Positions 1 to 14,534 of a DNA stretch of 61,236 nucleotides are shown in pieces. The notes under the pieces are model-generated. The model searched no databases. It saw nothing but the letters and a program-made list of their open reading frames with translations, and had not been told where the DNA came from. The translations under genes and the position numbers were made by a program. Location: NCBI GenBank assembly GCA_001797275.1, contig MGOY01000036.1, forward strand, positions 100,361 through 161,596, read 5' to 3'. This stretch comes from Clostridiales bacterium GWF2_38_85. GTDB lineage: Bacteria > Bacillota > Clostridia > Oscillospirales > CAG-382. Position 1 is the stretch's first letter, and every line of letters starts with the position of its first letter.

Positions 1-1307
1 TTTTGTATTATCAACACGAACACCGACAACACCGCCATCAGAGTGCCGGTGGTCAGCATCAGCACTTGAACACTGTTAAACATATGGCCGAACAGATTTA
101 TTACGTTGTCGCCGACAATATCGACGAAGCCTGTTCCGCAGACCATCCCGAACAGTGCCGCCATGTTAACGAATATCATATAAAACGCTATATAATTTGT
201 CCTGTCCTTAGCGGGCAGGTTGATATACGGAAAGTTTGCGAAGGTAATTGTTATCAAAACACTGAATAAGTGCTGTGAAAGTCTTACGACAAGCATCAAA
301 GTCTGATAATTCGAGCTGTCGACAAAAGCATAGAGTATATATGTTGGCAGCAGCATGAAAACCGCAAAAGCGAAGGATTTAAACCATGAAAGCTGTCTTA
401 TTATCCTCTTTGCAATTCCTCCGAACATAATAAAAAAGATAAAATACGAAGCGGTTATCATATTTACGAAGGTATATGTAACGCCGACATATTCGAGAAG
501 ATATGTATTTACAACCGATGCGGTCAAATTTGACGCGAAGGTATAACCGAACATGACAAGCATTGTCAGCAGAAATTTCTTATGCCTGAATGGCAATATA
601 AAGGTATCCGCCAATTTGGGCTTTTTTCCTGCTGTCTGCTCATATGGGTATTCTTTAGGCAGCGACAGCATGAAAATATCAAACATTGCGAAAGCAAAAC
701 CGATGATTCTGAGGATTGTGATAATCTGAAGCTGTTGGGGCGAGCCTGCAAGCGAATCGGTTATCAGTGAGCTGATAAGCACAACAACACCCATGATTGC
801 GTTTGCAACTGCGCTTGAGATATTAAAATAATCAGCCCTGATATTATCGGGCAGAAAATTAAGATGCCACACCGAATAACCTGATGAAAACAGCGAATTA
901 ATAGCCGATGCAACAAAAACAATTATGCAGAACCCGATAATTTTACCACTGTCGCTATGAACAAGCTCAGGTAAAACCGTAAGTCCGAGAATATTGATGA
1001 CATAATATGCGATCCTGCTTATCAGCAGGACTTTTTTACGCTGCTTAAAGCGTTCGAGTATCATCGGTGAAAACAGGCTGAACAGAGTAGCGATAAACGG
1101 AATGAAGGTTATGATACCTATATTGACGATGTTTATTCCGTGACCGACCAAAAAGCCGGAGTAAAAAATACCTCCGGTTATGCTTGACACTACTGCTGTC
1201 AGTATGCTCGACGACAGCATACAGCTTCTGCCTTTTGCATCCTGATCAGAGAAGTTGAAGAGCCGTCCAAATTGAGAGCTTCGAAGAGCAGCGATTATTT
1301 TATTCAT
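1..1307 (-). CDS. MFS-type membrane transporter, C-terminus beyond window edge
   Basis: Reading the minus strand from an ATG at 1307 gives about 435 codons without a stop, running off the left edge. The protein begins MNKIIAALRSSQFGRLFNF and consists of alternating hydrophobic helices and short charged loops. These include a cytoplasmic loop after the second helix with the basic stretch RFKQRKK, and a central hydrophilic loop near LPKEYPYEQ. This is the layout of a 12-helix major facilitator protein acting in the plasma membrane. No substrate can be named. The Shine-Dalgarno site is weak (GGG a few bases upstream). It is divergent from the TerB/BrxD cassette, with 426 nt of repeat-rich DNA between them. 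Seen: the open frame and its hydrophobicity. Inferred: MFS membership. Confidence 0.75.
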   Translation of the reverse strand, partial: MNKIIAALRSSQFGRLFNFSDQDAKGRSCMLSSSILTAVVSSITGGIFYSGFLVGHGINIVNIGIITFIPFIATLFSLFSPMILERFKQRKKVLLISRIAYYVINILGLTVLPELVHSDSGKIIGFCIIVFVASAINSLFSSGYSVWHLNFLPDNIRADYFNISSAVANAIMGVVVLISSLITDSLAGSPQQLQIITILRIIGFAFAMFDIFMLSLPKEYPYEQTAGKKPKLADTFILPFRHKKFLLTMLVMFGYTFASNLTASVVNTYLLEYVGVTYTFVNMITASYFIFFIMFGGIAKRIIRQLSWFKSFAFAVFMLLPTYILYAFVDSSNYQTLMLVVRLSQHLFSVLITITFANFPYINLPAKDRTNYIAFYMIFVNMAALFGMVCGTGFVDIVGDNVINLFGHMFNSVQVLMLTTGTLMAVLSVFVLIIQ

Positions 1308-1371
1308 AATTTTCCCGTTATTTTTTACTGTAGTGTTGTCTTTTAGGAAAATGCTCCGCATTTTCAGTAGG

Positions 1372-1476
1372 TATATTAAACTAACAAATGAATCAGGATA
1401 TTATTGATTTTGAAAAAGCCGTACAGAAAAGGCTTTTTCAAAATCGCTAAGGTAATTCATTTATCAGTTTTATATA
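1372..1476. repeat. 105-bp palindromic MITE-like element, copy A
   Basis: The ends at 1372-1393 and 1455-1476 are inverted repeats matching at 19 of 22 positions (left end starts TATATTAAACTAACAAATG). A second, perfect 14-bp inverted repeat lies inside (1407-1420 and 1431-1444, ATTTTGAAAAAGCC with its complement), around a 10-nt loop. The whole element could fold into one long interrupted hairpin. It has no coding capacity. A sister copy of exactly the same length lies at 1598-1702. Confidence 0.85.
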
Positions 1477-1597
1477 GTTAAAATTATTATATAGTAAATT
1501 GCAATTAAGTCAATGTATTTTTGCTACAAAATTATCCTATGTTTATTTATGATTTATATGATATAATTCTTGACATATTCGAACATATGTGCGATAA
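1477..1597. other. AT-rich spacer between two palindromic elements
   Basis: This 121-nt stretch separates element copies A and B and has no open frame of note. It includes TTGACA (1570-1575) within TCTTGACATATTCG, a possible -35 box for the downstream plus-strand cassette. The matching -10 region would fall at the AT-rich edge of copy B (around 1593-1602). I cannot show that it is a promoter. Confidence 0.35.
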
Positions 1598-1702
1598 TAT
1601 ATTAAACTAACAAATGAATTTTAATTTTATTAATTTGAAAAAGGACAAAAAGTATAGGCATTTTTCAAATTGCTGTAGTAATTCATTTACTAGTTTTATA
1701 TA
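1598..1702. repeat. 105-bp palindromic MITE-like element, copy B
   Basis: The end repeats are 1598-1619 and 1681-1702, again 19 of 22 matched, with the same left end as copy A. The inner inverted repeat AATTTGAAAAA (1632-1642) pairs with 1661-1671. The element stops 32 nt before the TTG start of the TerB-domain gene, so it sits in that gene's 5' region. It could shape the leader RNA of the cassette. Confidence 0.85.
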
Positions 1703-1733
1703 GTTTATATTTATCTGCCCATTAAGAGGTGAT

Positions 1734-3299
1734 TTGAGTTTGAAGGACAGCGACGAGCTTTTTACTATAGAAATTCATTTCGAAACTAATAAAAAACCAA
1801 AAGAAGAAAACAAGGAACAAATAAAGTTTAACAGTGATAAACCTGAACCGAAAAAGATTGAGGTTTATGGCCCTCAGCAGATTATTGATGAACGGTTAAA
1901 GGCTCTTAAGGAAAAGGCTGAGAAATGGCGTGAGGCAAAGAACCGCGCATTTCTTGATCTTCGTGATGCGATTTTCGACCAGAATAGAGGTGCTGTCAAA
2001 ACCACACGGGATACTTTTTTGAAGCAGGCAGAGAAATATAAAAACGAAACATCAGAACCCGTCAGCTTTGTCCCCTTCACCTGCTATTGGCCGACCTATG
2101 ATGTCATGTCGGATTCTCAACGCAAATGGTATTTCTTCTGGCGTGACCGCGCAAGACACGGTGAGTATCTGCAAACAGCGTTGTCCTACATCTTTCTTTA
2201 TGTTTACGAGCTGCTGGGCGAGATCGGGGTCGAGGACGAATGCGACGGGTTCATTAAGCTCTGTAACATCTGGGGTGAATTCCGAACCTATTTCCCAACG
2301 ATAGACAAATATATTGAGCAATGGACAGCTGATTACATTGCAATTCACTTCAAGGACGGGCTACCCGAATTTATCTTCAACTCAATCAACTACCCCGAAA
2401 CAATAAACCATCTGCCGACAAATTTAATTATTGACTACATTTTCAGAACAGGACTGCTGAAGCTGGGCGATGAGAATGCTATCACCTACATTGGCAGGTT
2501 CTCGAATTATAAAATCGAAGCAAGTAAATTCTATCAGAAAAACGACAAAGCCGAGATAAACGAAAGTATCACTCTTGTTATCTGTCATCTGAACAACTAT
2601 TTAAAAGATAAAACCGACAAGGGTATTCTCCAGACCTACACTCCTGCTTATATAAAGCCACAGACACGGCTGCCATATCAGAATGCAATTTATCAAGGCA
2701 AGGTAAAATCGGTTGAGGTTGACGCTTTTGACTACACAAAAAACAAATCGCTACGGGATTTCTTTACCGCAGTTATTAAGCAGACGGAAAATATACTCCG
2801 TAAGATGTCAAATTATAAGGGAAAACTAACAAACGAACTGCCAAAGGAATACAGCGATGTTATAGAAAAATTCCTGCTTGACAGGAGGAAAAGAAAAATA
2901 ATCGAAGAACGCTCGAAAATCGAAATGAATGTCGATAAGATAAGACAGCTTATCCATCATTCAAACGAAATCAGGGACAAGCTGCTTGAGGGCAGTGAAT
3001 TTTCAACTGATGAAACTATGAGTGAAGAAATTGCTGCAGAACAACCTGCACCACCGACTGCTGCCAAAGCAGACAGTAAATACGGTAATCTGTCTGCATA
3101 CCTGACCGAAACCCAAAGGCTACTGTTATCTTTTATCACCGAAAGAGGCGGTAGTATACTGTACAATGAGCTATCGAACAGCTTCAACGGCGTGTTTGTT
3201 CAGATGGAAATTGATAATATAAACGAAGCTGCAATATCTTGTCTGGGCGATATTTTAATATTGTCAGAAGGCGAGGAGCTTATAATTCAAGAAATATAA
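1734..3299 (+). CDS. TerB-N/TerB-C domain protein of a BrxD-helicase cassette
   Basis: This 521-residue soluble protein is the first gene of a four-gene cassette. Residues about 1-110 are charged and probably partly coiled-coil. A TerB-N domain starts near residue 116, with the recognisable run PTYDVMSDSQRKWYFFWRDR followed by the aromatic-rich SYIFLYVYELL. A charged linker (about 355-450) leads to a short TerB-C-like end (about 455-521). TerB-type domains are known from tellurite-resistance and stress or phage-resistance gene neighbourhoods; no enzymatic motif is visible. The frame opens with TTG at 1734, and a second TTG at 1740 is better spaced from GAGGTG (1726-1731). The next gene starts 20 nt downstream, implying one operon. 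A role as adaptor or sensor for the ATPase and helicases is inference. Confidence 0.8.
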   Translation: MSLKDSDELFTIEIHFETNKKPKEENKEQIKFNSDKPEPKKIEVYGPQQIIDERLKALKEKAEKWREAKNRAFLDLRDAIFDQNRGAVKTTRDTFLKQAEKYKNETSEPVSFVPFTCYWPTYDVMSDSQRKWYFFWRDRARHGEYLQTALSYIFLYVYELLGEIGVEDECDGFIKLCNIWGEFRTYFPTIDKYIEQWTADYIAIHFKDGLPEFIFNSINYPETINHLPTNLIIDYIFRTGLLKLGDENAITYIGRFSNYKIEASKFYQKNDKAEINESITLVICHLNNYLKDKTDKGILQTYTPAYIKPQTRLPYQNAIYQGKVKSVEVDAFDYTKNKSLRDFFTAVIKQTENILRKMSNYKGKLTNELPKEYSDVIEKFLLDRRKRKIIEERSKIEMNVDKIRQLIHHSNEIRDKLLEGSEFSTDETMSEEIAAEQPAPPTAAKADSKYGNLSAYLTETQRLLLSFITERGGSILYNELSNSFNGVFVQMEIDNINEAAISCLGDILILSEGEELIIQEI

Positions 3300-3319
3300 A
3301 TATAGGATGGTGAAATAGA

Positions 3320-4630
3320 TTGAGCGAAATAACAATACCGAAAAGGGTATCAACTGCGTTGATCAATTCTCTCAGCTCAGGTGTTACTCCAAGAATCGGA
3401 CTCGAATATATGGCAGTCGGCAGGAAGAATGAAATTGAAACACTGCTGAACGACCTTTCGAATATAGCTGAGGGTGGTTCTGTGTTCAGATTCATTGTCG
3501 GCCGATATGGCAGCGGTAAAAGCTTTCTTCTGCAGATAATCCGCAATTATGCAATGGACCGTAATTATGTTGTTACCGATGTCGACCTGTCTCCCGAACG
3601 CAAGCTTTGCGGCAACAAGGGGCAGGGGCTTGGAACATACAAGGAGCTGATGCAGAACCTGTCGACAAAGGTTCGCCCTGACGGCGGTGCGTTAGCATCC
3701 ATACTCGAAAAATGGGTTGCGCAGATTCAGATGTCGGTAATGAAGGATAATAATATAACTGTATCAGAACCGAAGTTTTCATCACTGGTTGAGATAAAAA
3801 TTATGGAAGTCATCGGTGAAATGGATTCTATGGTGCATGGCTTCGACTTCGCAAAGGTCATGACTGCCTATTGGGAAGGCTGCAAGACCGGCAACCAGGA
3901 GCGTAAAAACGTTGCACTCAAATGGTTTCGGGGCGAGTATTCGACCAAAACTGAGGCAAATAATGAGCTTGGCGTGCGTATAATCATTGACGACGACACC
4001 TGGTTCGATTATATAAAGCTGATGTCTGTATTTGTCCGCCAGCTCGGGTATGCAGGATTCCTTGTTTTGATGGATGAGGGCGTAAACCTCTACAAAATCT
4101 CAAACACAATTGCAAGAAACAACAACTACGAAAAGCTTCTGACTATTTTCAACGACACAATGCAGGGGCGGTCAAGCGGTATCGGCTTTTACCTTTGCGG
4201 TACACCTCAATTTGTTGAGGACAACCGCAGAGGACTGTTCAGCTACGAAGCGTTGAAAACCCGTCTCGCAACGACCCGCTTTGTCAAAGATGGAATAAGA
4301 GATATGCAAAGTCCGCTTATCTACCTTGACAGGCTGACTAACGAAGAGATCTTCGTGTTACTTTTAAAGGTAAAGGGTATTCACGAACAGCATTTCGCAT
4401 ACAAAAGCAATGTAACGAAAGAAGATCTCGTCTCATTTATGAAGGTTGTTACCGGGAGAGTCGGAGCTGACGAACTGCTGACTCCGAGAGAAATAATCAG
4501 GGATTTTATTGGAATTATGAATGTACTCAAACAACAACCTGAGCTGTCGTTCGATAACCTTGTGACCGATGATTTGTTAAAAACAACTCCGCAAACGGAT
4601 GACGATGATTCAATGGTATTCGAAATCTGA
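3320..4630 (+). CDS. BrxD-like P-loop ATPase (BREX ATP-binding family)
   Basis: This is a 436-residue AAA-type ATPase of the family often annotated as BREX system ATP-binding protein (DUF2791). The Walker A motif GRYGSGKS lies at residues 61-68 and Walker B FLVLMDEG at about 247-254. A conserved VDLSPERKL segment near residue 88 follows the first strand after the P-loop. The start is TTG at 3320 with GGATGG 9 nt upstream. In type 2 BREX systems BrxD accompanies an Lhr-like helicase (BrxHI), and the same pairing is present here. It probably hydrolyses ATP to load or control the helicases on DNA in the cytoplasm. That is inference from family and context. Confidence 0.85.
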   Translation: MSEITIPKRVSTALINSLSSGVTPRIGLEYMAVGRKNEIETLLNDLSNIAEGGSVFRFIVGRYGSGKSFLLQIIRNYAMDRNYVVTDVDLSPERKLCGNKGQGLGTYKELMQNLSTKVRPDGGALASILEKWVAQIQMSVMKDNNITVSEPKFSSLVEIKIMEVIGEMDSMVHGFDFAKVMTAYWEGCKTGNQERKNVALKWFRGEYSTKTEANNELGVRIIIDDDTWFDYIKLMSVFVRQLGYAGFLVLMDEGVNLYKISNTIARNNNYEKLLTIFNDTMQGRSSGIGFYLCGTPQFVEDNRRGLFSYEALKTRLATTRFVKDGIRDMQSPLIYLDRLTNEEIFVLLLKVKGIHEQHFAYKSNVTKEDLVSFMKVVTGRVGADELLTPREIIRDFIGIMNVLKQQPELSFDNLVTDDLLKTTPQTDDDDSMVFEI

Positions 4631-4674
4631 ATAAATATCAAAAACTTGCGTTATTATTAGAGGATTAACATAAT

Positions 4675-7005
4675 ATGACAGATAACAACGTTTTCAATCG
4701 ACTTTCACCTTTTATAAAAAATTATATATACCGCAACAACTGGACAGAGCTGCGTGAGGTGCAGGTCGAGGCCTGCAAGGTTATATTTGATACAGATGCG
4801 CACCTGCTGCTCAGCACAGGGACCGCTTCCGGAAAGACCGAAGCGGCATTTCTGCCTGTCCTTACAGAGCTGACAAATGATCCGCCGCTGTCGGTGGGGG
4901 TGCTTTATGTAGCACCGCTCAAATCGTTGATAAACGATCAATTTTATAGGCTCAACGGCCTGCTTGAGGAAGCCAATATCCCAGTCTGGCACTGGCATGG
5001 CGATGTCTCACAGAGCCACAAGAAAAAGCTGATGCGTGAGCCTCAGGGAGTGCTTCAAATAACTCCCGAATCACTCGAAAGCATGCTGATAAACAAGAAC
5101 CGTGATTTGGTGCGTATTTTTGGCGACCTGCGGTTTATAATCATAGATGAAGTACACAGCTTTATGGGCACCGACAGAGGAATTCAGGTCATCTGCCAGC
5201 TTGAACGGCTGCAGCGGTTTATCCGCAATTCACCTCGCAGAATCGGGTTATCAGCAACACTCGGCGATTATACAAAAGCCGAACAATGGTTGGCATCGGG
5301 TACAGACAGACGGATTATAACTCCGCAGATTAATGTATCATCACAAAAAATCCGGCTTGCAGTCGAACATTTTTACGACCCGCTCGATGCTCCGAAGGAT
5401 GAAAAGAAAGAGCAGCCTGACAGCTTTGAGTCGGAAAAGGATGCTGATATTAACCTCGAAGAAAAAGAAGATGAAAAAGGCGATGGCAAGGAACTGAAAA
5501 CTACTGCCTTTTGGGAATATATCTACGAAAAAAGCCTGAACAAGAAGTGTATTATCTTTGCAAATATGCGTGACCAGGCTGAATATGCAATTGCGATGCT
5601 GCGCCAGATTGCGGAGCTTCGCGGTTCGCCCGATATATACCATGTGCATCACGGCAGTATATCCTCCGCACTCCGTGAGGAAGCTGAAAGTGAGATGAAG
5701 GAGAGCGCTGCACCGATTGTAGTCGGTGCAACCCTGACGCTTGAGATGGGAATCGACATCGGTCAGCTTGAACGGATTATCCAGATTGATGCGCCAAGCT
5801 CTGTGTCAAGCTTTCTGCAAAGGCTGGGACGTTCGGGCAGACGAGGCAATGCGTCCGAGATGTGGTTTGTATGCAGAGAGGAAAAGCCGTCGGGACTGCC
5901 GATGCTGCCGCTGCGAATGCCTTGGAAACTGATGCAGGACATAGCAATAATACAGCTATACATCGAGGAGCATTGGATTGAACAGCCGAGAAAACCGAAA
6001 TATCCGCTAAGCATGCTTTACCACCAGACCATGAGTGTACTTGCTGAGTTAGGCGAAGCAACACCGGCACTGCTTGCAAAGCGTGTGCTTGGGATGGAAG
6101 CCTTTAAAAGTATATCCTTCGATGATTACCGTGAGCTATTGCAGCTTCTTATACAAAACGACCATCTTCAACTGACCAGCGAGGGCAGTATGATAATAGG
6201 CTTGACCGGCGAGAAGATTGTCGGCAGCTTCAAATTTTTTGCAGTGTTCCCCGAAGAGGACGATTATACAATTGTTGCCGACTCAAATGTAATCGGCAAA
6301 GTCGAGTTCCCACCGCCTCCGGGCGAACGAATGACCATTGCCGGCAGGACATGGGAGGTGCTTGAAGTTGACTTGAAGAGCAAGATTGTCAATGTTAAGC
6401 GTGTCAAGGGAAAAATCAAAACCTATTGGGCAGGCGGAAACCTCAAGATTGATAACCATATACTCCAGCGGATGAGAAGAATTCTTACCGAACAGAACGA
6501 CTTTCCCTATCTGCAAAAAGGTGCAAAGGAACGTATGAGCGAAGCCTATTTTCTTGCGAGAAGCTCGGGGCTTGACAAGTACAATGTAGTCAGTCTGGGT
6601 GGAAAAAGCGTCTGCATCTTCCCCTGGATGGGAAACATCGATTATTATACAATAATGTTGTTGATTAAAAAGCTCTGCGGTCATATGCTCAATCTCAAAA
6701 GTGTCGGCGGACAACCGCCTTACTTCATAACTCTTAAAATCGGCAGCGGTACAGCAACCGCAGACGACTTCCTTGCTGAGTTCAGGACTGCGCTTAATCA
6801 ACAAATTAACCTTGAATATATGCTTGATGATAATGATATTATTGATTTGAAGGGTTATTACGAATACAAACCACCGAAGTTCGATAAGTTTGCACCTATG
6901 TCTTTATTGAAAAAAGCAATAATAAACGATTATATTGATCTTGACAGAATCCGTACAGCTGTCGGCTCCTGGACAAGCCTTAATGAAGGTAAAGCTGAAA
7001 CATGA
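4675..7005 (+). CDS. Lhr/BrxHI-like DEVH superfamily 2 helicase, first copy
   Basis: This 776-residue helicase has motif I GTASGKTEA (49-57), Ia PLKSLINDQ (81-89), ITPESLE (129-135), the DEVH box (158-161), SAT (193-195), motif V GATLTLEMGIDIG (351-363) and motif VI QRLGRSGRRG (382-391). The C-terminal half, about 390-776, is the long accessory region of Lhr-type enzymes. A lysine/glutamate-rich insert at about 240-275 is missing from the tandem second copy. SD AGAGGA precedes the ATG by 8 nt. The stop overlaps the start of the second helicase (ATGA), so translation is coupled. It is expected to unwind nucleic acid with ATP; the target is unknown. Confidence in helicase identity is high and in the defence role moderate. 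Confidence 0.92.
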   Translation: MTDNNVFNRLSPFIKNYIYRNNWTELREVQVEACKVIFDTDAHLLLSTGTASGKTEAAFLPVLTELTNDPPLSVGVLYVAPLKSLINDQFYRLNGLLEEANIPVWHWHGDVSQSHKKKLMREPQGVLQITPESLESMLINKNRDLVRIFGDLRFIIIDEVHSFMGTDRGIQVICQLERLQRFIRNSPRRIGLSATLGDYTKAEQWLASGTDRRIITPQINVSSQKIRLAVEHFYDPLDAPKDEKKEQPDSFESEKDADINLEEKEDEKGDGKELKTTAFWEYIYEKSLNKKCIIFANMRDQAEYAIAMLRQIAELRGSPDIYHVHHGSISSALREEAESEMKESAAPIVVGATLTLEMGIDIGQLERIIQIDAPSSVSSFLQRLGRSGRRGNASEMWFVCREEKPSGLPMLPLRMPWKLMQDIAIIQLYIEEHWIEQPRKPKYPLSMLYHQTMSVLAELGEATPALLAKRVLGMEAFKSISFDDYRELLQLLIQNDHLQLTSEGSMIIGLTGEKIVGSFKFFAVFPEEDDYTIVADSNVIGKVEFPPPPGERMTIAGRTWEVLEVDLKSKIVNVKRVKGKIKTYWAGGNLKIDNHILQRMRRILTEQNDFPYLQKGAKERMSEAYFLARSSGLDKYNVVSLGGKSVCIFPWMGNIDYYTIMLLIKKLCGHMLNLKSVGGQPPYFITLKIGSGTATADDFLAEFRTALNQQINLEYMLDDNDIIDLKGYYEYKPPKFDKFAPMSLLKKAIINDYIDLDRIRTAVGSWTSLNEGKAET

Positions 7006-9224
7006 CTGATTATTACAGCAGACTTTCTCCGTTCATAAGAGAATATATATACCACAACAACTGGACTTCGCTCAACGAAATCCAGCTTGAGGCCTGCCGT
7101 GTTATTTTTGATACAAATGCGCATCTGCTGCTTTCGTCAGGCACCGCCTCTGGCAAGACCGAGGCGGCATTTCTTCCTGCGCTGACAACCATTGAAGAGG
7201 ATATGCCCCAAAGCATTGCAATCCTCTACATCGCACCCATGAAAGCGTTGATTAACGACCAGTTTTTCAGGCTTGACGACCTGCTGAGGGAAGCCGACAT
7301 ACCCGTAGCCTGCTGGCACGGCGATATATTGCAGTCGAAAAAGCAAAAGGTTATCAAGGAACCGAGAGGTATTCTGCAAATTACCCCTGAATCTCTGGAA
7401 TGCATGCTGCTCAACCGCAACCGCGATCTGGGCAGGCTGTTTGGCGACCTCAGATATGTTATAATTGATGAGGTTCATGCCTTTATGGGCAGCGACAGAG
7501 GAATACAGATTCTCTGTCAGCTTGAGAGACTAAAAAAGTATATTAGGACAACTCCCAGAAGAATCGGGCTGTCTGCAACACTCGGCGACTACGAACAGGC
7601 TGAACGTTGGCTTTCATCGGGAACGGATATTCATGTCATAACCGTCAGCGGTTCTGATACTCACCGCAAAATTAAGCTGTCGGTTGAGCATTTTACAGAA
7701 CCTGTGCTTGAAACAGAGATGAGCCCGTTCAACGATCCTGCGTGGCCATATCTTTATGAAAAGAGCCTTGGTAAGCGTTGTATCATCTTTTCAAACGGCA
7801 GAGAAACAGCTGACGCAGTTATAACAAACATGAAGTTCATGTCAAAGATGAACGGTGACCCCGATATATATCATGTACACCACGGCAGCATCTCAGCTTC
7901 GCTTCGTGAATATGCCGAAACCGAAATGAAGGAAAGCAGTGAGCCTGTTGTAATCGGCGCGACCGTAACACTTGAAATGGGCATTGATATCGGCAAGCTC
8001 GAACGGGTTATCCAGATAGGTCCACCAATATCGGTGAAAAGCTTAGTGCAAAGATTAGGGCGGTCGGGCAGACGCGGAACCATACCCGAGATGTTGTTTG
8101 TTGACTGGGAGAATTCACAAGAAAAGCGTATGCCGCTGCCCTATCAGATACCCTGGCGGATGATACAGATAATCGCAATGCTGCAGCTATACCTTGAGGA
8201 ACGCTGGATTGAGCCGGCAAAGATACTAAAATATCCACTCAGCATGCTATATCAGCAGATAATGAGCAATGTTGCGCAGTCGGGTGAGCTTTCACCACAG
8301 GCACTTGCTGATATTATACTGTCGATGGACAGCTTTAGCTATATCGAAGTTGACGATTTCCGCGACTTGATTATGCAGTTGATCGAGCTTGACCATCTTG
8401 AAATGACCGAGGAACGGGGGCTTATCATCGGACTTGAGGGCGAAAAAATCATCAATAACTATAAATTTTATGCCGTGTTCCCCGATGTTGAAGAGGAATG
8501 GGCGGTTATGAACGGCTCAAAGAAGTTAGGCACGATCGAATACCCTGTCAAGCCCTCACAGCTGTTCACCATCGCCGGACAATGCTGGATTGTTACCGGA
8601 GTTGACAGCAACAAACGCTTAGTTTTTGTCGAGGAAACCAAGCGGAAGATAGAGCTTTTGTGGAAGGGCGACAGAGCGTTGACCCACAACCGAATCCTTG
8701 AACGCATGAAGCAGGTGCTGTTTGAAGACACTGAATATCCTTATCTGCAGGAAGCCGCAAGGGATTGTTTGAAAAGTGCAAGAAGGATTGCGAGAGAGCA
8801 AGAATGGGATAAAATAAACTTGTTCGATATCGGCAGCAATACTCTCTGCCTGCTGCCCTGGATGGGACACATTAGCTATTATACATTGCTAAAATTAGTT
8901 GGCAAATATATGACCAAGGGCGAGAGCGACGACTTCCGTATAAAAAAAATAGGCGGTCTGCGCCCTTATTTTATAACCTTCAAGCTTGAGAATCCGAACA
9001 CTGGAATCATACTCGAAAAGCTGAAATCGCTGATCAATTCCGAAATCCCCGAGGAATTTGTGGTTGATGAGCATGACATCAGACAGCTCAAAAAGCAATT
9101 CGAATACAAGGAGCCTAAATACGACCGCTACCTGACACCGACACTGCTGAAAAAGCAGGTAATCGAGGACTATATCGACCTCGATTATCTAAAAAACGAG
9201 ATAAATAAGTGGAGCTGCGGATAA
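7002..9224 (+). CDS. Lhr/BrxHI-like DEVH superfamily 2 helicase, second tandem copy
   Basis: This 740-residue paralogue of the preceding helicase is collinear with it along nearly the whole length. For example, both have NNWT near residue 20, TASGKTEAAFLP near 50, DEVH (156-159 here), HVHHGSIS and QRLGRSGRRG. It lacks the acidic insert of copy one, so its two RecA lobes are joined by a short linker. It starts inside the stop of copy one with a 4-nt overlap and no separate promoter. Duplicated helicases in one operon suggest a heteromeric complex or specialisation. Nothing follows in the same direction, and tmcAL converges 62 nt downstream, so the cassette ends here. Confidence 0.92.
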   Translation: MTDYYSRLSPFIREYIYHNNWTSLNEIQLEACRVIFDTNAHLLLSSGTASGKTEAAFLPALTTIEEDMPQSIAILYIAPMKALINDQFFRLDDLLREADIPVACWHGDILQSKKQKVIKEPRGILQITPESLECMLLNRNRDLGRLFGDLRYVIIDEVHAFMGSDRGIQILCQLERLKKYIRTTPRRIGLSATLGDYEQAERWLSSGTDIHVITVSGSDTHRKIKLSVEHFTEPVLETEMSPFNDPAWPYLYEKSLGKRCIIFSNGRETADAVITNMKFMSKMNGDPDIYHVHHGSISASLREYAETEMKESSEPVVIGATVTLEMGIDIGKLERVIQIGPPISVKSLVQRLGRSGRRGTIPEMLFVDWENSQEKRMPLPYQIPWRMIQIIAMLQLYLEERWIEPAKILKYPLSMLYQQIMSNVAQSGELSPQALADIILSMDSFSYIEVDDFRDLIMQLIELDHLEMTEERGLIIGLEGEKIINNYKFYAVFPDVEEEWAVMNGSKKLGTIEYPVKPSQLFTIAGQCWIVTGVDSNKRLVFVEETKRKIELLWKGDRALTHNRILERMKQVLFEDTEYPYLQEAARDCLKSARRIAREQEWDKINLFDIGSNTLCLLPWMGHISYYTLLKLVGKYMTKGESDDFRIKKIGGLRPYFITFKLENPNTGIILEKLKSLINSEIPEEFVVDEHDIRQLKKQFEYKEPKYDRYLTPTLLKKQVIEDYIDLDYLKNEINKWSCG

Positions 9225-9286
9225 CAAGGAACAGCGAATTCGATAGTAAACGTTAAGAGTCGCCCTTAAAATTTATTATTTGAATA

Positions 9287-10414
9287 TTAAATTATCACCG
9301 GTGATTTTATGCAGGCCTGTCCGCCCTGTTTGGGTGTTTTATCAGCCAGTGCCATGATATCATCTGCTCTCTCAGACAGCAGAAACTGCTTCTGTGCAAT
9401 AAGCGGCAGCTTTTTGTAATGAGCAGGCTTTGCAAGTACAGGCATAGCTTGTGTGTTCAGCTCGTTTAATATATTCAGCTTTACCCGATTTGCCGCAAGC
9501 AGCATTGTGTATCTTGGTAGCCGCTTTGCCATACGCATATCGGCACCGATGAAACTGTGCAGAACCGCTCGCCTGATTTTTGCATGTGTGTCGGTAAGTG
9601 CTGATGCGGATTTATATAACTCTTCAAGGTTGGTCGCTTTTACAGCGGCCTTTTTTATTCTGACCGCAAAATCGTCGGTCATATCGTAAATTCTAAGATA
9701 GTCCTTTATTTCCATCATCCTCAGCTTTGCGATTATCGCAAGCTCAAGGTTTTTCATTGCTCTCATTTCCGCATTGCCAAACTGCTCCGCGGAATACAGC
9801 GGCAGCTCAGAGAGCATCTCTTCCCTGCTCATGGCTCTGATAACCGATGCCGATAAAAATTCATGGTTGCGTTTTATCGGAAAATAGCTGATTTTGTCAC
9901 CGCCGGCAATCATATATTCGATGCCGAGGATGTTATTCGGTTTTATCAGAAGCTCTGCTTTGTCGCTGCCCAGCAGCTGTCTTACATACTCCTGTCTTGC
10001 TTGCGGATATGAAAGACTGCCTTTCTCATTGAGCATTATTCTTATTTCATCTTGAGTTGATGGTTTTATTAACAATCTCACCAGCTCCTCAAGTCCATCA
10101 TTCTCAGCTCCGAATACAAGGGTTGGTATTCCAAGCATAGTTGCAATATGTACCCCCGATGCTGCAAAATCCCTTGCGCCAAGCGATGAATAAGGGTATG
10201 GCAGCTCAAGCACAATATCTGCGCCCTCTCTGACCGCCGCCTCCGCACGGATGTATTTGTCAGCAATAGCACACTCACCACGCTGTACGGTTGTACCCGA
10301 CATAATACAGATGACAGTATCGAAGCTTTGCTTCATTATTTCCATCTGATATTTATGTCCCTTGTGGAACGGATTGTATTCGCAGATTACTGCGCAGGTT
10401 GTTTTGTCTTGCAT
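9287..10414 (-). CDS. tmcAL: tRNA(Met) cytidine acetate ligase
   Basis: This 375-residue protein begins with the nucleotidyltransferase signature CEYNPFHKGHKYQ, where the HxGH motif is at about residues 17-20. It continues with the family runs SGTTVQRGE, ADKYIRAEAA and ADIVLELPYPYSSLGARDFA. The former name was YlbM. TmcAL activates acetate with ATP to acetylate the wobble cytidine of elongator tRNA-Met. Acetate kinase lies divergently next to it, though a functional link is only suggestive. The start at 10414 fits the family N-terminus, but no clear Shine-Dalgarno site precedes it. A perfect GGAGGT lies about 70 nt upstream. It converges with the helicase cassette. Confidence 0.9.
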   Translation of the reverse strand: MQDKTTCAVICEYNPFHKGHKYQMEIMKQSFDTVICIMSGTTVQRGECAIADKYIRAEAAVREGADIVLELPYPYSSLGARDFAASGVHIATMLGIPTLVFGAENDGLEELVRLLIKPSTQDEIRIMLNEKGSLSYPQARQEYVRQLLGSDKAELLIKPNNILGIEYMIAGGDKISYFPIKRNHEFLSASVIRAMSREEMLSELPLYSAEQFGNAEMRAMKNLELAIIAKLRMMEIKDYLRIYDMTDDFAVRIKKAAVKATNLEELYKSASALTDTHAKIRRAVLHSFIGADMRMAKRLPRYTMLLAANRVKLNILNELNTQAMPVLAKPAHYKKLPLIAQKQFLLSERADDIMALADKTPKQGGQACIKSPVII

Positions 10415-10525
10415 AAATTATTGCATGATTCTGCACAACATTCCATATATGGGCATTTGGAACCGTTTAAACAGAATCCGCTTACCTCCGTTATTAAATT
10501 CTTAGTTTATATAATGCAAAAAGTC

Positions 10526-10554
10526 TTGCAAATCAAAAAGAAAAGTGATATATT
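10526..10554 (+). promoter_or_regulatory. Likely sigma-A promoter of ackA
   Basis: TTGCAA at 10526-10531 and TATATT at 10549-10554 are separated by exactly 17 nt. Transcription from here would give an ackA leader of about 185 nt. Confidence 0.6.
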
Positions 10555-10560
10555 ATATAT

Positions 10561-10701
10561 GCTGTATTTTTAACACAGCTAATTTTTTATGAATAATAAT
10601 ATCCTCCACACCCTACCGAGTAAAATTAGTAATAACAATTTTGTGGAGGCACGCGCGAATATATTACGATTTCTTATTTTTTCACGCTACAAAATTATTA
10701 T
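10561..10701 (+). promoter_or_regulatory. Structured 5' leader of ackA
   Basis: The leader holds three inverted repeats. GCTGT and ACAGC (10561-10580) form a short hairpin. CCTCCACA (10603-10610) pairs perfectly with TGTGGAGG (10642-10649). An AACAATTTTGT-type arm (about 10631-10643) pairs with ACAAAATTATTAT (about 10689-10701). The second and third overlap, so the structures are mutually exclusive. It matches no riboswitch class I know. Confidence 0.5.
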
Positions 10702-10745
10702 ATACAAAATATCAAAAAAGGTCAAGTAATGGAGGACAAATTCTA

Positions 10746-11948
10746 ATGTATGTATTGGTCATCAATGCAGGCAGCTCATCACTGAAGTATCAGCTGTTTG
10801 ATATGGCAACCGAAGAGGTGTTTGCCAAAGGATTATGCGACAGAATCGCTATTGACGGTATCTTAACACACCAAACCAAAGGTAAAGAAAAATATATTAA
10901 ATCAATCGCTATGCCGAACCATTCCAAAGCTATCGAAGCAGTTCTTAAGATACTTTGTGACAAGGAGTTCGGCTGTATTGATGATTTGTCGCAAATAATT
11001 GCGTGCGGACACAGAATCGTGCATGGCGGTGAGTGGCTGACACAGTCGGTGCTTGTAAATGACAGAGTTATCGAAGACCTCGAAAAATGCCGTTCGATTG
11101 CACCGCTTCACACCGGTCCGCATCTTATGGGACTTCGCGGATGTATGGAAAATATGCCGACAACTCCACAGGTGCTTGTCATTGATACAGCATATCATCA
11201 GTCAATGCCTGCGCACGCATATATGTATCCGATCCCGTATGCGCTTTATGAAAAATACAAAATCCGTCGCTACGGATTCCACGGCACCTCGCACAGATAT
11301 GTTGCCACAAAAGCAATCGAATATCTTGGTAAACCTGCGGAAGATACAAAAATTATCACCTGCCATCTTGGCAACGGTTCATCAATAAGCGCCATACTCG
11401 GTGGTAAAGTTATAGATACAAGTATGGGATTTACACCACTCGAAGGCGTCATAATGGGTTCAAGATCGGGTGATATCGATCCTGCAATCGTTCCATTCAT
11501 CATGGAGAAGGAAAACATACCGGCATCTGAAATGGGTGAATGGTTAAACAAGAAATGTGGATTACTTGGGGTTTCGGGTGTTTCAAGCGATCTTCGTGAT
11601 ATTGATGCTGCAATCAAAGCCGGAAACGAGCGTGCTAAGCTTGCATTTGATATCCTCTGTTATGATATCAAAAAATACATCGGTGCATATACAGCTGCAC
11701 TTAATGGACTTGATGCAATTGTATTTACAGCCGGTATCGGTGAAAATAATGTTTCGGTACGTTATGACTCATTAAAAGACCTTGAATTCTTCGGTATAAA
11801 GATTGACAAAGAAAAGAATGAAAATTTCCGCTCAATGTCTGATCCAGTCGACATCTCTACAGCAGATTCCAAGGTCCGCATCTATGTTATACCCACCAAC
11901 GAAGAGCTTGTTATCGCAAGAGATACAATGGCTATCGTCAGCAAATAA
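10746..11948 (+). CDS. ackA: Acetate kinase
   Basis: This is a 400-residue acetate kinase (acetyl phosphate + ADP to acetate + ATP), cytoplasmic, and the ATP-yielding end of mixed-acid fermentation. Characteristic runs are NAGSSSLKYQ at the N-terminus, GHRIVHGGE, HLGNGSSISA, DTSMGFTPLEG, GSRSGDIDP and TAGIGENN; length is typical. A longer in-frame extension from 10641 exists, but the ATG at 10746 is preceded by GGAGG at a suitable distance and gives the normal N-terminus. Phosphotransacetylase, the usual partner, is not adjacent. A strong terminator follows directly. Confidence 0.97.
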   Translation: MYVLVINAGSSSLKYQLFDMATEEVFAKGLCDRIAIDGILTHQTKGKEKYIKSIAMPNHSKAIEAVLKILCDKEFGCIDDLSQIIACGHRIVHGGEWLTQSVLVNDRVIEDLEKCRSIAPLHTGPHLMGLRGCMENMPTTPQVLVIDTAYHQSMPAHAYMYPIPYALYEKYKIRRYGFHGTSHRYVATKAIEYLGKPAEDTKIITCHLGNGSSISAILGGKVIDTSMGFTPLEGVIMGSRSGDIDPAIVPFIMEKENIPASEMGEWLNKKCGLLGVSGVSSDLRDIDAAIKAGNERAKLAFDILCYDIKKYIGAYTAALNGLDAIVFTAGIGENNVSVRYDSLKDLEFFGIKIDKEKNENFRSMSDPVDISTADSKVRIYVIPTNEELVIARDTMAIVSK

Positions 11949-11950
11949 TA

Positions 11951-12259
11951 CTAATCTCTCATAAAACACACATCGGGAGCAGAAAATCTGCTCCCGATGT
12001 GTGTTTTTGATGCTTCATCCCAATCCTTTTCAACAATTTTATTACCGAAATTAAATGAGAAGAAATAAAAATCTGTTCCTGTTATGTATTTTTCCATATC
12101 AGGCGTCGATATATCTATATGCCGGACAACAAAGGAATAAAGCACAGCATTGTACTGCACTGTTCCGCCGTCAGCTAACATTTTTGTGGGTATAGGTGTT
12201 AGTAAAACAACCAACAGTATTATAATAATTATAATCCTCTCTCGCATTTTCTTTTTCAT
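11951..12259 (-). CDS. Small exported or membrane-anchored protein of unknown function
   Basis: The protein is 102 residues from the ATG at 12259; an upstream in-frame ATG at 12271 abuts the AAGGA site and is less likely. The N-terminus is basic (KKKMRER), followed by an isoleucine/leucine-rich segment (IIIIIILLVVLLTPIPTK) that is a signal peptide or single membrane anchor. The sequence PTKMLADGGTVQYNAVLYS follows and the remainder is polar. It resembles short lipoprotein-like hypotheticals common in Clostridia, but I cannot assign a function. The last ~15 codons are supplied by the perfect ackA terminator hairpin, so the true C-terminus may have been extended over it. Confidence 0.6.
   Translation of the reverse strand: MKKKMRERIIIIIILLVVLLTPIPTKMLADGGTVQYNAVLYSFVVRHIDISTPDMEKYITGTDFYFFSFNFGNKIVEKDWDEASKTHIGSRFSAPDVCFMRD
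11964..12006. terminator. Perfect 20-bp hairpin, ackA terminator
   Basis: Arms 11964-11983 and 11987-12006 are perfectly complementary (AAACACACATCGGGAGCAGA), with an AAA loop. In the plus direction the stem ends in a T run. It lies inside the last codons of the opposite-strand ORF, so it may serve both genes. Confidence 0.85.
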
Positions 12260-12329
12260 GCCTATATTCATTCCTTATACTAATTCGAATTATAATAAAC
12301 AACAAACGAATTCAACCCAGCGTTGTATT

Positions 12330-12968
12330 TTAATAATACATGCTATCTAATATGAATTTCTGATTAGCTGCATCAATATCAGAGTATTGTTGCAAATCAT
12401 TTCCGTCATTCATTCCACTTCCCGGACTCATTTCTATATCCAATACATAATTATAATTACTGCATTTTGAAAGAAGACTATATGTACCATCTGTATTTTT
12501 ACGATATCGGAATATTTGGCCGCTTGTTCCGTCATCATGCCAAATCCACGCGTCTGTCCCTGAACTTGTAGAACTGCCGATAATACTCAATAATTTACCG
12601 CTATTTACATCTTGAATTTTATAATTTCCGTTGCCTATATAGATGAATAACCAATCTTGAGCCGCAGTATTATTATAAGGAAATTGTTGTATAATAGTGC
12701 CGTCTCCCGTTGCGGAATTTTCAACATCCAAATATTTTCCGCTGAGATATGATTTTATATTATATGTTCGTTCCGGAATTTTTGTATTTGCAGCAAGTTG
12801 CAAAACAAATTTTTGATCATCCGTACCATTGTCATAATATTGTTGAAGGTTATTGGTATCCGTTATGTCTAAAACATAGTTGTATAAACTGGCTTTTGTT
12901 AGAAAACTAAACGTTCCATCATCATTTTCGCGTATGTGAAATTTCTGACCTGTTGAGCCATCGTATTG
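12330..12968 (-). pseudogene. Ricin-lectin 3' part cut off by an in-frame TGA
   Basis: This is the downstream continuation, in the same frame, of the secreted SpoIID-like gene. It completes one ricin-type beta-trefoil domain (QYDGSTGQKF, NYVLDI, LQQYYDNGTDDQKFVL). It then encodes a second whole domain (YNIKSYLSGKYLDVEN, QDWLFIYIGNGNYKI, AWIWHDDGTSGQIF, LQQYSD). It would be translated only by reading through the TGA at 12969-12971, or from an internal start for which I see no ribosome site. Such domains bind carbohydrate and usually tether secreted proteins to glycans. Confidence 0.7.
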
Positions 12969-14534
12969 TCATATCCAGGCATTAGCCCCTGCAGCTGAAG
13001 AGTTAGCATCAATACTCAAATATTTGCCACTGTTTATATCTTTTATAATATACTCACCATTTCCTATATGAACAATTAACCATTCTTGATATGCTGTATT
13101 TGTATCATAAGTTGCTTGTATTACATTTGTTGTATTTCCAGTTGCACCACCCGATACAGTAAGATACTTTCCGCTTTGAACACATCTAATATTATATACT
13201 TTCCCACTGACGAGTTTATTTACAGTAACAGAAGTAAAGATATTAACTATACCAGTAGTTGGATTATTGTATGCAGAATTATTATAGTAATAATGAATAA
13301 TATATTGCCATGAATATCCAAGGTCAGCAAGATATTTTGCATTATATTGTCTTAAAATACCGCTGTTCTGAGTATCCGACGCTGGATATGAATATGTACC
13401 TTGATACCATGGCATATAAAAATATCCGTAAGTACTTTTGACACCAATATTGCGAATTGTATTTACATAATTTCTTATTGTTTGTGGAATATTATCTTCA
13501 GAATCATTAGGATCATAAGCTACATCATGATTAGCAAGTATATCACAGCCTTGAGCGTCACGAAAATTACCAAGGTAACACCACCATGAAGTCATTTTAG
13601 CAGCCATTGCTTGAGCAATAATTACATCAGAGTCCCAAAAAACTCCACCTGCGTCAGGTTGTCCTACTTCATTAAAAGTAACATTTTCATAAAATAGACT
13701 GAAGTCAACATCATAATATGCAGATGCTTCAGGAATTAAATCTGATTTATTGGGATCGTATCCAGCTAAAATATGGAAAGGCTCAATATTACTTCCGTTT
13801 ATAAATCCTGTCACTTGTACAGTTTTAGTATTATTAATTTTTATATTTGTATTATTATCCAATAAACTTAAAGATCTATCTGAATAATCAGATATTGCAT
13901 CTTCAACTGGATATGTTCCTTTAAAATCTTCTAAAAGTTCTATTGGACAACCACAAGTGACTCCAACTCCCCAATTTCCATTATCATTAACTAATAAAAC
14001 GAGCTTGTAATTTATGCCATCAAAGTAATATTTACTCTTTTCGTGTACATTAATATCATATCCGATCATGTAGCACTCATAACTGGTATCATTATTTTGA
14101 TAATTTTCAAGCTCTCGATATTTAGGAGCGTAACAATTATCTACTTTATCAATTGATATAATTTTTAGTGATGAAATGTTTAATATTCCTCTATGATTTT
14201 TTTGATTATCTTCATTTGTAACAAAACTTAAATAGGTTTCTCTTAAGCTAGGAATATAATATGAAGCCCAAGAACTCCAATCTCCTTTATCTATACTCTT
14301 GCAGTAATTATAAATCATTTTTTTGCTATCAGTAAGGATATTATAATTTAATGCCGGAAGTTCTACTTTTTGTGTGTCTGAGTTTTCAATGGGGTCAAAA
14401 GAATTTGTAAAAGAATTTTTGTATTCTTGAGATACTGTATTAAATGCCTGTACGCTAATGGTTTGTAAAACTATAATTAATAATAAAGTAAGTATTAAAT
14501 ATAACCTTAAATAATGATTTTTAAATTTTAACAT
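12969..14534 (-). CDS. Secreted SpoIID-like protein with truncated C-terminal ricin lectin domain
   Basis: The 521-residue product begins with a signal peptide (hydrophobic LYLILTLLLIIVLQTISVQA, cleavage near residue 30). Residues about 45-200 form an unassigned domain. About 215-430 resemble the SpoIID/LytB fold, with DVIIAQAMAAKMTSWW near the middle and LADLGYSWQYIIHYYYNNS near its end. From about 448 a ricin-type beta-trefoil starts (YNIRCVQSGKYLTVSG, QEWLIVHIGNGEYII). The frame stops at a TGA in codon 522 exactly where the second ricin repeat has Trp. Without it the protein would be 734 residues. SD AAAGGAG precedes the ATG well. It may act on or bind cell-wall or host glycans; the SpoIID assignment is tentative. 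Confidence 0.65.
   Translation of the reverse strand: MLKFKNHYLRLYLILTLLLIIVLQTISVQAFNTVSQEYKNSFTNSFDPIENSDTQKVELPALNYNILTDSKKMIYNYCKSIDKGDWSSWASYYIPSLRETYLSFVTNEDNQKNHRGILNISSLKIISIDKVDNCYAPKYRELENYQNNDTSYECYMIGYDINVHEKSKYYFDGINYKLVLLVNDNGNWGVGVTCGCPIELLEDFKGTYPVEDAISDYSDRSLSLLDNNTNIKINNTKTVQVTGFINGSNIEPFHILAGYDPNKSDLIPEASAYYDVDFSLFYENVTFNEVGQPDAGGVFWDSDVIIAQAMAAKMTSWWCYLGNFRDAQGCDILANHDVAYDPNDSEDNIPQTIRNYVNTIRNIGVKSTYGYFYMPWYQGTYSYPASDTQNSGILRQYNAKYLADLGYSWQYIIHYYYNNSAYNNPTTGIVNIFTSVTVNKLVSGKVYNIRCVQSGKYLTVSGGATGNTTNVIQATYDTNTAYQEWLIVHIGNGEYIIKDINSGKYLSIDANSSAAGANAWI

What the first reader, a model, noticed from the sequence alone, without database searches (positions are those of the whole stretch)
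1734..9224. Compact TerB-BrxD-helicase-helicase cassette, a candidate stand-alone defence system
Four plus-strand genes in one transcript encode a TerB-N/TerB-C protein, a BrxD-like ATPase and two Lhr/BrxHI-like helicases. BrxD and BrxHI are known parts of type 2 BREX, and TerB domains occur in stress and phage-resistance neighbourhoods. Here no methylase, PglZ, PglW or nuclease accompanies them. Either the set works alone through nucleic-acid translocation, or it is a degenerated BREX island. The intact frames and motifs argue for function.
Basis: partly seen in the sequence, partly recalled or inferred. Interest (0 to 1): 0.85.

Follow-up and report, generated by a model that had tools for sequence, protein, structure and literature searches.

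The report
SOS-box Shango defence operon, two helicases
The four genes are a known bacterial anti-virus system called Shango, in an unusual form that carries two helicase genes instead of one and a promoter that looks as if DNA damage switches it on.

Summary
The four genes are real, but the system is known. It is Shango: SngA (TerB protein), SngB (AAA+ ATPase) and SngC (helicase). PADLOC models match at 217, 625, 794 and 741 bits, and Shango restricts phages in Pseudomonas (PMC10250203, passages). It is not a decayed BREX: this genome's BREX genes lie on another contig, and 11 of 12 same-family genomes with SngC have no PglZ.

Three things go beyond the textbook system. (1) SngC is a tandem pair of old, co-inherited paralogues with intact motifs, found in 5 of 12 same-family genomes that have SngC. 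(2) A LexA/SOS-box-like palindrome lies between -35 and -10 of the sngA promoter. The same 29-bp layout precedes sngA in 7 of 7 testable members of this clade. SOS control is inferred; LexA binding was not tested. (3) The cassette separates two genes that adjoin each other in a sister species; in another family SngB and SngC are often unlinked yet co-retained.

Verdict: new variant of a known kind. The SOS link is the testable new part.

The parts
1372..1485 (.). First copy of a dispersed ~114-nt imperfect palindromic repeat
   Evidence: 40 distinct places scored in the own genome, out of 139 first-look candidates
1570..1598 (+). Promoter-like site TTGACA-17-GATAAT, 11 of 12 matches, TG before the second hexamer
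   Evidence: same 29-bp layout upstream of sngA in L021-L026
1580..1593 (.). LexA/SOS-box-like palindrome CGAACATATGTGCG between -35 and -10
   Evidence: 1 mismatch to the 14-mer CGAACATATGTTCG; B. subtilis box CGAACN4GTTCG (PMC9578287 Table 1); only hit with 2 or fewer mismatches in the window
1598..1711 (.). Second copy of the repeat (77% to the first); it begins at the end of the -10 hexamer, so it fills most of the presumed leader
1734..3299 (+). sngA: TerB_N/TerB_C protein, 521 aa
   Evidence: PADLOC SngA 217 bits; Pfam TerB_N, TerB_C; predicted winged helix at residues ~448-521, weak
3320..4630 (+). sngB: AAA+ ATPase of the BrxC/D family, 436 aa
   Evidence: PADLOC SngB 625 bits; Pfam BrxC_BrxD 537 bits; AAA+ fold
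4675..7005 (+). sngC1: SF2 Lhr/BrxHI-like helicase, 776 aa, with a charged linker between the two RecA domains
   Evidence: PADLOC SngC 794.5 bits; motifs intact
7002..9224 (+). sngC2: tandem paralogue of sngC1 (52% identity), 740 aa, short linker, start overlaps the sngC1 stop
   Evidence: PADLOC SngC 741 bits; tree

Best explanation
This is a Shango anti-phage operon in a four-gene form, sngA-sngB-sngC1-sngC2, that has moved into its present site and is probably held down by LexA. Proposed working: phage replication or other DNA damage activates RecA, LexA leaves the box inside the sngA promoter, and the operon is expressed (inferred from the promoter). SngB, an AAA+ ATPase, assembles on DNA and loads SngC-type helicases (inferred from the AAA+ fold and from the loader role proposed for BrxD toward BrxHI). 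SngA, through a C-terminal winged helix and its TerB domains, senses or positions the complex (inferred, weak). The two helicases, which diverged long ago but are kept together, act as a pair on phage replication intermediates and block replication by unwinding or translocation; no nuclease domain was found. Shown here: identity, gene order, two intact retained helicases, the promoter layout, the changed site. Not shown: LexA binding, phage effect, any biochemistry. My odds: Shango 0.97; SOS control 0.75; loader-helicase mechanism 0.45; paired rather than redundant helicases 0.5.
For: Identity: PADLOC SngA 217, SngB 625, SngC 794 and 741 bits; same order sngA-sngB-sngC in the other loci found. 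Known phage effect of Shango: PMC10250203, passages. Two helicases: C1 and C2 form two clades (C2 6 rows 100*, the C1 group of five 100*), window and L023 sisters in both at 99*; the C-type motifs are intact in the 5 pairs inspected; synonymous sites saturated while pN is 0.12-0.20 between orthologues, so both are under constraint; 40 fixed differences, and SngC1 alone has the charged linker. SOS promoter: 7 of 7 testable clade members; first-order Markov controls 0 of 3000 for each of the seven; six other Shango loci used as controls had only chance matches; upstream DNA otherwise unrelated, except that L025 and L026 share theirs. A box CGAACACATGTTCT lies upstream of a radical-SAM DNA-repair-type gene in a same-family genome, and the GTGC half-site variant recurs at another promoter, in L186. 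Loader: AAA+ model with Cdc6/Orc1, TnsC and BrxC among the matches; BrxD proposed as loader of BrxHI (PMC12839542, passages). SngC, BrxHI, DruE and DpdJ form one helicase clade (PMC12278908, passages).
Against: The promoter pattern was written down after seeing the sites, and it was tested on DNA that I had fetched for Shango. The window's box has one mismatch in its second half-site (GTGCG for GTTCG). I could not find recA or lexA in this genome, so the local LexA box is not established. Most other Shango loci lack a box: of 68 sngA starts with upstream DNA (window not counted), 6 had GAACN4GTTC and 6 only the looser form, 56 none, with about 0.9 strict expected by chance; three plasmid copies had none. 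L024's second helicase is split over two frames, and L025 and L026 have one helicase, so C2 is dispensable somewhere. SngA model: pTM 0.57, no Foldseek hit at E<=0.001. SngB's structural matches have TM-scores of only about 0.3-0.42.
Confidence: 0.6

Rival explanations
1. In this clade Shango is first a DNA-damage-response or replication-maintenance complex of the cell, and phage restriction is a by-product.
For: SOS-box-like promoter. Best NCBIfam match of both helicases is the ligase-associated DNA damage response helicase, though far below its cut-off (212.8 and 210.7 bits against 850). In another family (f20) SngB is in 87 and SngC in 88 of 116 good genomes; 129 of 196 hold both, against 92 expected if independent, and in 54 of these the two genes are on different contigs. 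Two single-SngC sites scanned sit among housekeeping-type genes.
Against: Patchy in the window's own family: 12 of 63 genomes. The cassette lies at different places in related genomes. Shango protects against phages when moved into another strain (PMC10250203). Shared ancestry alone raises co-occurrence, which I did not correct for.
Confidence: 0.2
2. The second helicase is redundant or is an escape variant: a duplicate kept for dose, or to evade phage inhibitors, not a working partner.
For: C2 evolves faster than C1: pN 0.18-0.20 against 0.12-0.18, 372 against 454 invariant columns over five pairs. Independent tandem pairs exist in a Heimdallarchaeota locus and in G836. C2 is split in L024.
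Against: C2 keeps the helicase motifs in the five pairs inspected and is retained beside C1 in five genomes; 40 fixed differences point to different roles.
Confidence: 0.3
3. The palindrome is the operator of another repressor, not LexA.
For: GTGCG half-site differs from the textbook box in the window, L021, L022 and L023; lexA and recA of this genome not examined; some controls carry isolated boxes.
Against: L024, L025 and L026 have the full GAACN4GTTC, as given for B. subtilis and C. difficile (PMC4234289, PMC9578287, passages); placement between -35 and -10 is that of a repressor site.
Confidence: 0.2
4. A decayed type 2 BREX island.
For: SngB and SngC are relatives of BrxD and BrxHI.
Against: Shango models beat BREX models by far; BrxD equivalog score below its cut-off; no PglZ in 11 of 12 genomes; all four frames intact.
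Confidence: 0.02

Closest known systems
Shango (SngA-SngB-SngC; PADLOC PDLC03958-03960)
   Same: All three protein families, gene order and compact operon.
   Different: Two SngC genes instead of one; LexA-box-like promoter, which most other Shango loci examined lack.
Type 2 BREX (BrxD, BrxHI subset)
   Same: SngB is in Pfam BrxC_BrxD; SngC resembles BrxHI (404 and 392 bits).
   Different: No PglX, PglZ, PglW or BrxC beside it; BrxD equivalog cut-off not reached.
Druantia DruE and Dpd DpdJ helicases
   Same: Same potential SF2 helicase clade as SngC according to PMC12278908 (passages); weak PADLOC matches.
   Different: Other partner genes; Druantia III's DruE is described as a helicase-nuclease on ssDNA-containing intermediates (PMC13192584, abstract start in listing).
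Firmicute SOS regulon (LexA box CGAACN4GTTCG)
   Same: Palindrome and its position over the promoter.
   Different: One mismatch in the window's box; no LexA test.

Membership tests
Shango | SngA-family TerB protein | tested here: met
   PADLOC SngA 217 bits over model 81-517 of 528; TerB_N and TerB_C over Pfam cut-offs
Shango | SngB-family ATPase adjacent | tested here: met
   PADLOC SngB 625 bits, full length
Shango | SngC-family helicase adjacent | tested here: met
   Two copies, 794.5 and 741 bits
Shango | Exactly one helicase gene (three-gene system as published) | tested here: not met
   Two tandem SngC genes; I treat this as a variant because all three defining protein families are present
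Shango | Restricts phages | not testable with these tools
   Shown for the P. aeruginosa PA14 system (PMC10250203, passages), not for this one
Type 2 BREX | BrxD equivalog | tested here: not met
   NF033438 171.5 bits, cut-off 350
Type 2 BREX | PglZ and PglX with the cassette | tested here: not met
   Neighbour genes are unrelated; the one PglZ match in the genome is on contig C18, beside PglX, BrxC and BrxL
LexA (SOS) regulon | LexA box at the promoter | tested here: met
   CGAACATATGTGCG between -35 and -10, 1 mismatch to the 14-mer; layout in 7 of 7 testable clade members
LexA (SOS) regulon | Same box at recA and lexA of this genome | not tested
LexA (SOS) regulon | LexA binding and DNA-damage induction | not testable with these tools
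   Needs bench work

The most novel reading that the evidence does not exclude
Shango of this clade is an SOS-induced complex in which an AAA+ loader places a pair of unlike helicases on stalled or foreign replication intermediates. It would join the DNA-damage response to phage defence, and in some lineages it would be a resident genome-integrity module, with its genes dispersed yet always kept together, from which the mobile defence cassette is drawn.
Probability: 0.25. Interest if true: 0.75.

Novelty: new variant of a known kind. Interest (0 to 1): 0.5.

Why it matters
A 2026 review still lists Shango's mechanism as unknown (PMC12926258, passages). If the promoter reading is right, the trigger of at least one branch is DNA damage, which makes the open question (what does Shango sense and act on?) directly testable with mitomycin C, recA and lexA mutants. 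A natural two-helicase form gives separable mutants. Split but co-retained SngA-SngB and SngC loci would be missed by tools that require neighbouring genes, so the system may be commoner than counted, and may have a cellular role.

Tried and rejected
Degenerate BREX: rejected. Solved relatives by sequence: none for SngA at E<=0.1; for SngB one weak P-loop ATPase hit (E 0.028); SngC matches 23 distinct chains at E<=1e-10 (Lhr-type, YprA, Ski2/Brr2-type and others). Structure search with SngA: no Foldseek match at E<=0.001; the winged-helix rows (Z up to 8.2 for residues 448-521) are near the level the tool calls common. Phage and viral origin of the cassette: 1 of 50,697 phage records, no confirmed relative in viral contigs. 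Plasmids: 684 of 72,556 records match SngC2 at E<=1e-60, all below 60% identity; only three were opened, and all three show a large upstream gene (annotated TerB in two), an ATP-binding protein and the helicase; I did not check that the other 681 are Shango. RNA families at 1-14000: none at gathering score. E. coli-type SOS box in three plasmid Shango copies: none. An exact empty site could not be read: MFS and tmcAL adjoin in G025, but MFS is inverted relative to tmcAL and the intergenic DNA does not align. dN/dS could not be computed, synonymous sites being saturated. I checked at most two scored candidates per genome in the order and phylum surveys, so tandem counts there are lower bounds. 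L179 was fetched but not analysed, so BrxA and BrxB of the own-genome BREX were not looked for; I call it BREX genes, not a complete system.
Full report
What is there. Four intact plus-strand genes occupy 1734-9224. Pfam finds TerB_N and TerB_C in the first, BrxC_BrxD in the second, DEAD and Helicase_C in the third and fourth. PADLOC-DB names them at once: SngA 217 bits, SngB 625, SngC 794.5 and 741. BREX models score far lower on the ATPase (BrxD 168 bits; NCBIfam BrxD 171.5 against a cut-off of 350). So the cassette is Shango, a three-gene TerB-ATPase-helicase system tested against phages in P. aeruginosa and, as that paper says, in E. coli (PMC10250203, passages read; the original E. coli paper is not held).

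Not a BREX remnant. In the twelve same-family genomes with SngC, PglZ occurs in one, the window's own, on contig C18. There BrxC, PglX, a ThsB-like TIR gene, PglZ and BrxL stand in a row, followed by Lamassu genes LmuA, LmuC and LmuB. The Shango cassette is on contig C36 between an MFS transporter and a HIGH nucleotidyltransferase.

Two helicases. Of 63 same-family genomes 12 have SngC at E<=1e-120, and five of these (the window's genome, G025, G041, G043, G046) have two in tandem; one more (G031) is cut by a contig end. In an order-wide sample of 394 genomes 85 have SngC and the same five have two; in a phylum-wide sample of 398, 25 have SngC at E<=1e-100 and only the window's genome has two. 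At most two candidates per genome were scored in those two samples. Among 80 loci of named genomes tandem pairs appear in L021-L023 (which are the loci of G041, G043 and G025), in L024, where the second copy is split over two frames, and in L048, a Heimdallarchaeota contig. In another family G836 has three SngC matches, two of them in tandem. The tree of 41 SngC sequences puts the first copies and the second copies of the window's group in separate clades, and the Heimdallarchaeota pair together (99*), hence at least two separate duplications. L025 and L026, with one SngC, group with the first copies (95*), and the position of two long rows (L014, L015) is unsure. First and second copies are about 52% identical, orthologues 63-80%. 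In the five complete pairs motifs I, II (DEVH or DEIH), III and VI are kept, 40 columns are fixed differently, and only the first copies carry the charged linker. Synonymous sites are saturated, so no dN/dS is given; pN between orthologues is 0.12-0.18 for C1 and 0.18-0.20 for C2.

The promoter. The best plus-strand sigma-70-like site upstream is TTGACA-17-GATAAT at 1570-1598, although such scans found 30 sites against 15.6 expected by chance in this AT-rich DNA. Between its hexamers lies CGAACATATGTGCG, one mismatch from CGAACATATGTTCG; published boxes are CGAACN4GTTCG in B. subtilis and S. aureus (PMC9578287, Table 1 passage) and GAACN4GTTY in Clostridium (PMC4234289, passages). It is the only site with two or fewer mismatches in the 61 kb. 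I noticed it on comparing L022. The same 29-bp layout stands before sngA in L021, L022, L023 (GTGCG form) and L024, L025, L026 (full GAACN4GTTC): 7 of 7 clade members with upstream DNA; the eighth, G046, starts inside sngB. The upstream DNA is otherwise unrelated, except between L025 and L026. A pattern for this layout has 12 hits in 2.34 Mb of held DNA, all of them these seven promoters, some held twice, and none in 3000 random sequences for each promoter. The pattern was framed after the fact. Six other Shango loci used as controls show only chance matches. Of 68 other sngA starts with upstream DNA, 6 have the strict box (L024-L026 plus Paenibacillus L084, L093, L095), 6 only the loose one (L021-L023 plus L050, L052, L169), 56 none; about 0.9 strict are expected. 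L093 also has its box between TTGAAA and TATAAT. Among sngB and sngC starts without a linked sngA in hand, 38 were testable and 2 had a loose match. In the same bacterial family a box CGAACACATGTTCT lies upstream of a gene whose best NCBIfam match is the DNA modification/repair radical SAM family (305.6 bits, under its cut-off of 343.5), and L186 has a perfect box and two CGAACATTTGTGC sites upstream of a small regulator-like gene. I could not look for recA or lexA here. The SngB tree joins the eight members as one clade (99*).

Place and mobility. In G025 the MFS and nucleotidyltransferase frames are 2 bp apart with no Shango between, MFS pointing the other way; G025's own four-gene Shango is on another contig. 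The neighbours of the four-gene loci differ between genomes. Hence the cassette has moved, by an unknown route; no recombinase adjoins. Two copies of a palindromic repeat lie just upstream; it is a dispersed element of this genome, 40 places scored of 139 candidates.

Split Shango. In the order sample 83 genomes have both SngB and SngC; they are within 2 kb in 64 and on different contigs in 19. In family f20, 129 of 196 have both, 9 only SngB, 2 only SngC, 56 neither; 73 adjacent, 2 on one contig 3-4 kb apart, 54 on different contigs, of which 35 have both genes more than 2.5 kb from the low end of the contig (the high end was not checked). In seven split genomes opened, SngC stood alone in seven, and SngA sat beside SngB in six; in G292 TerB_N, SngB and SngC are on three contigs. 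These are draft genomes; misbinning cannot be excluded for each, and common descent was not corrected for.

How it may work. SngB models as an AAA+ ATPase (pLDDT 85.5) with HslU, Cdc6/Orc1, TnsC and BrxC among the matches, at modest TM-scores. PMC12839542 (passages) proposes that BrxD loads BrxHI; by analogy SngB may load SngC. SngA (pLDDT 79.2, pTM 0.57) ends in a probable winged helix. Expression after DNA damage, loader, helicase pair and block of phage replication is my most likely chain; only the parts list and promoter layout are shown.

Print. Searches for Shango, Shango with LexA and SOS boxes with defence islands gave no report of SOS-controlled or two-helicase Shango in this open-access library; the one paper with both Shango and LexA uses them in unrelated places. 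Subscription papers are not covered.

Noticed in passing
window 1372-1485 and 1598-1711; G000 genome-wide: A ~114-nt imperfect palindromic repeat with 23-nt ends, dispersed in the genome (40 distinct places scored, 139 first-look candidates), MITE- or REP-like; the second copy begins at the -10 element of the Shango promoter.
   Followed up: partly
G000 contig C18, L163:162-17916: BREX genes BrxC, PglX, PglZ and BrxL with a ThsB-like TIR gene between PglX and PglZ, followed directly by Lamassu genes LmuA, LmuC and LmuB.
   Followed up: partly
family f20 genomes, e.g. L164/L165, L166/L167, L174/L175; G292 contigs C43, C18, C5: Split Shango: SngA-SngB at one locus and SngC at another, co-retained in 54 of 129 genomes with both genes.
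   Followed up: partly
L048:8974-13505: A Heimdallarchaeota contig carries SngA-SngB with its own, separately duplicated tandem SngC pair.
   Followed up: partly
Paenibacillus and Saccharibacillus loci L049-L100: Most of the loci returned for these genera have SngA-SngB-SngC in a row, and SngA length varies widely between species.
   Followed up: no
L186:13130-13380: One perfect LexA-type box and two CGAACATTTGTGC sites upstream of a small gene weakly matching phrog_36, transcription regulator.
   Followed up: partly
window 12330-14534: Two AT-rich genes with ricin-type beta-trefoil lectin domains, GC 27-33%.
   Followed up: no
L026:287-1780, minus strand: A further SngC-like reading frame (406 bits) in the opposite direction just before sngA.
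   Followed up: no
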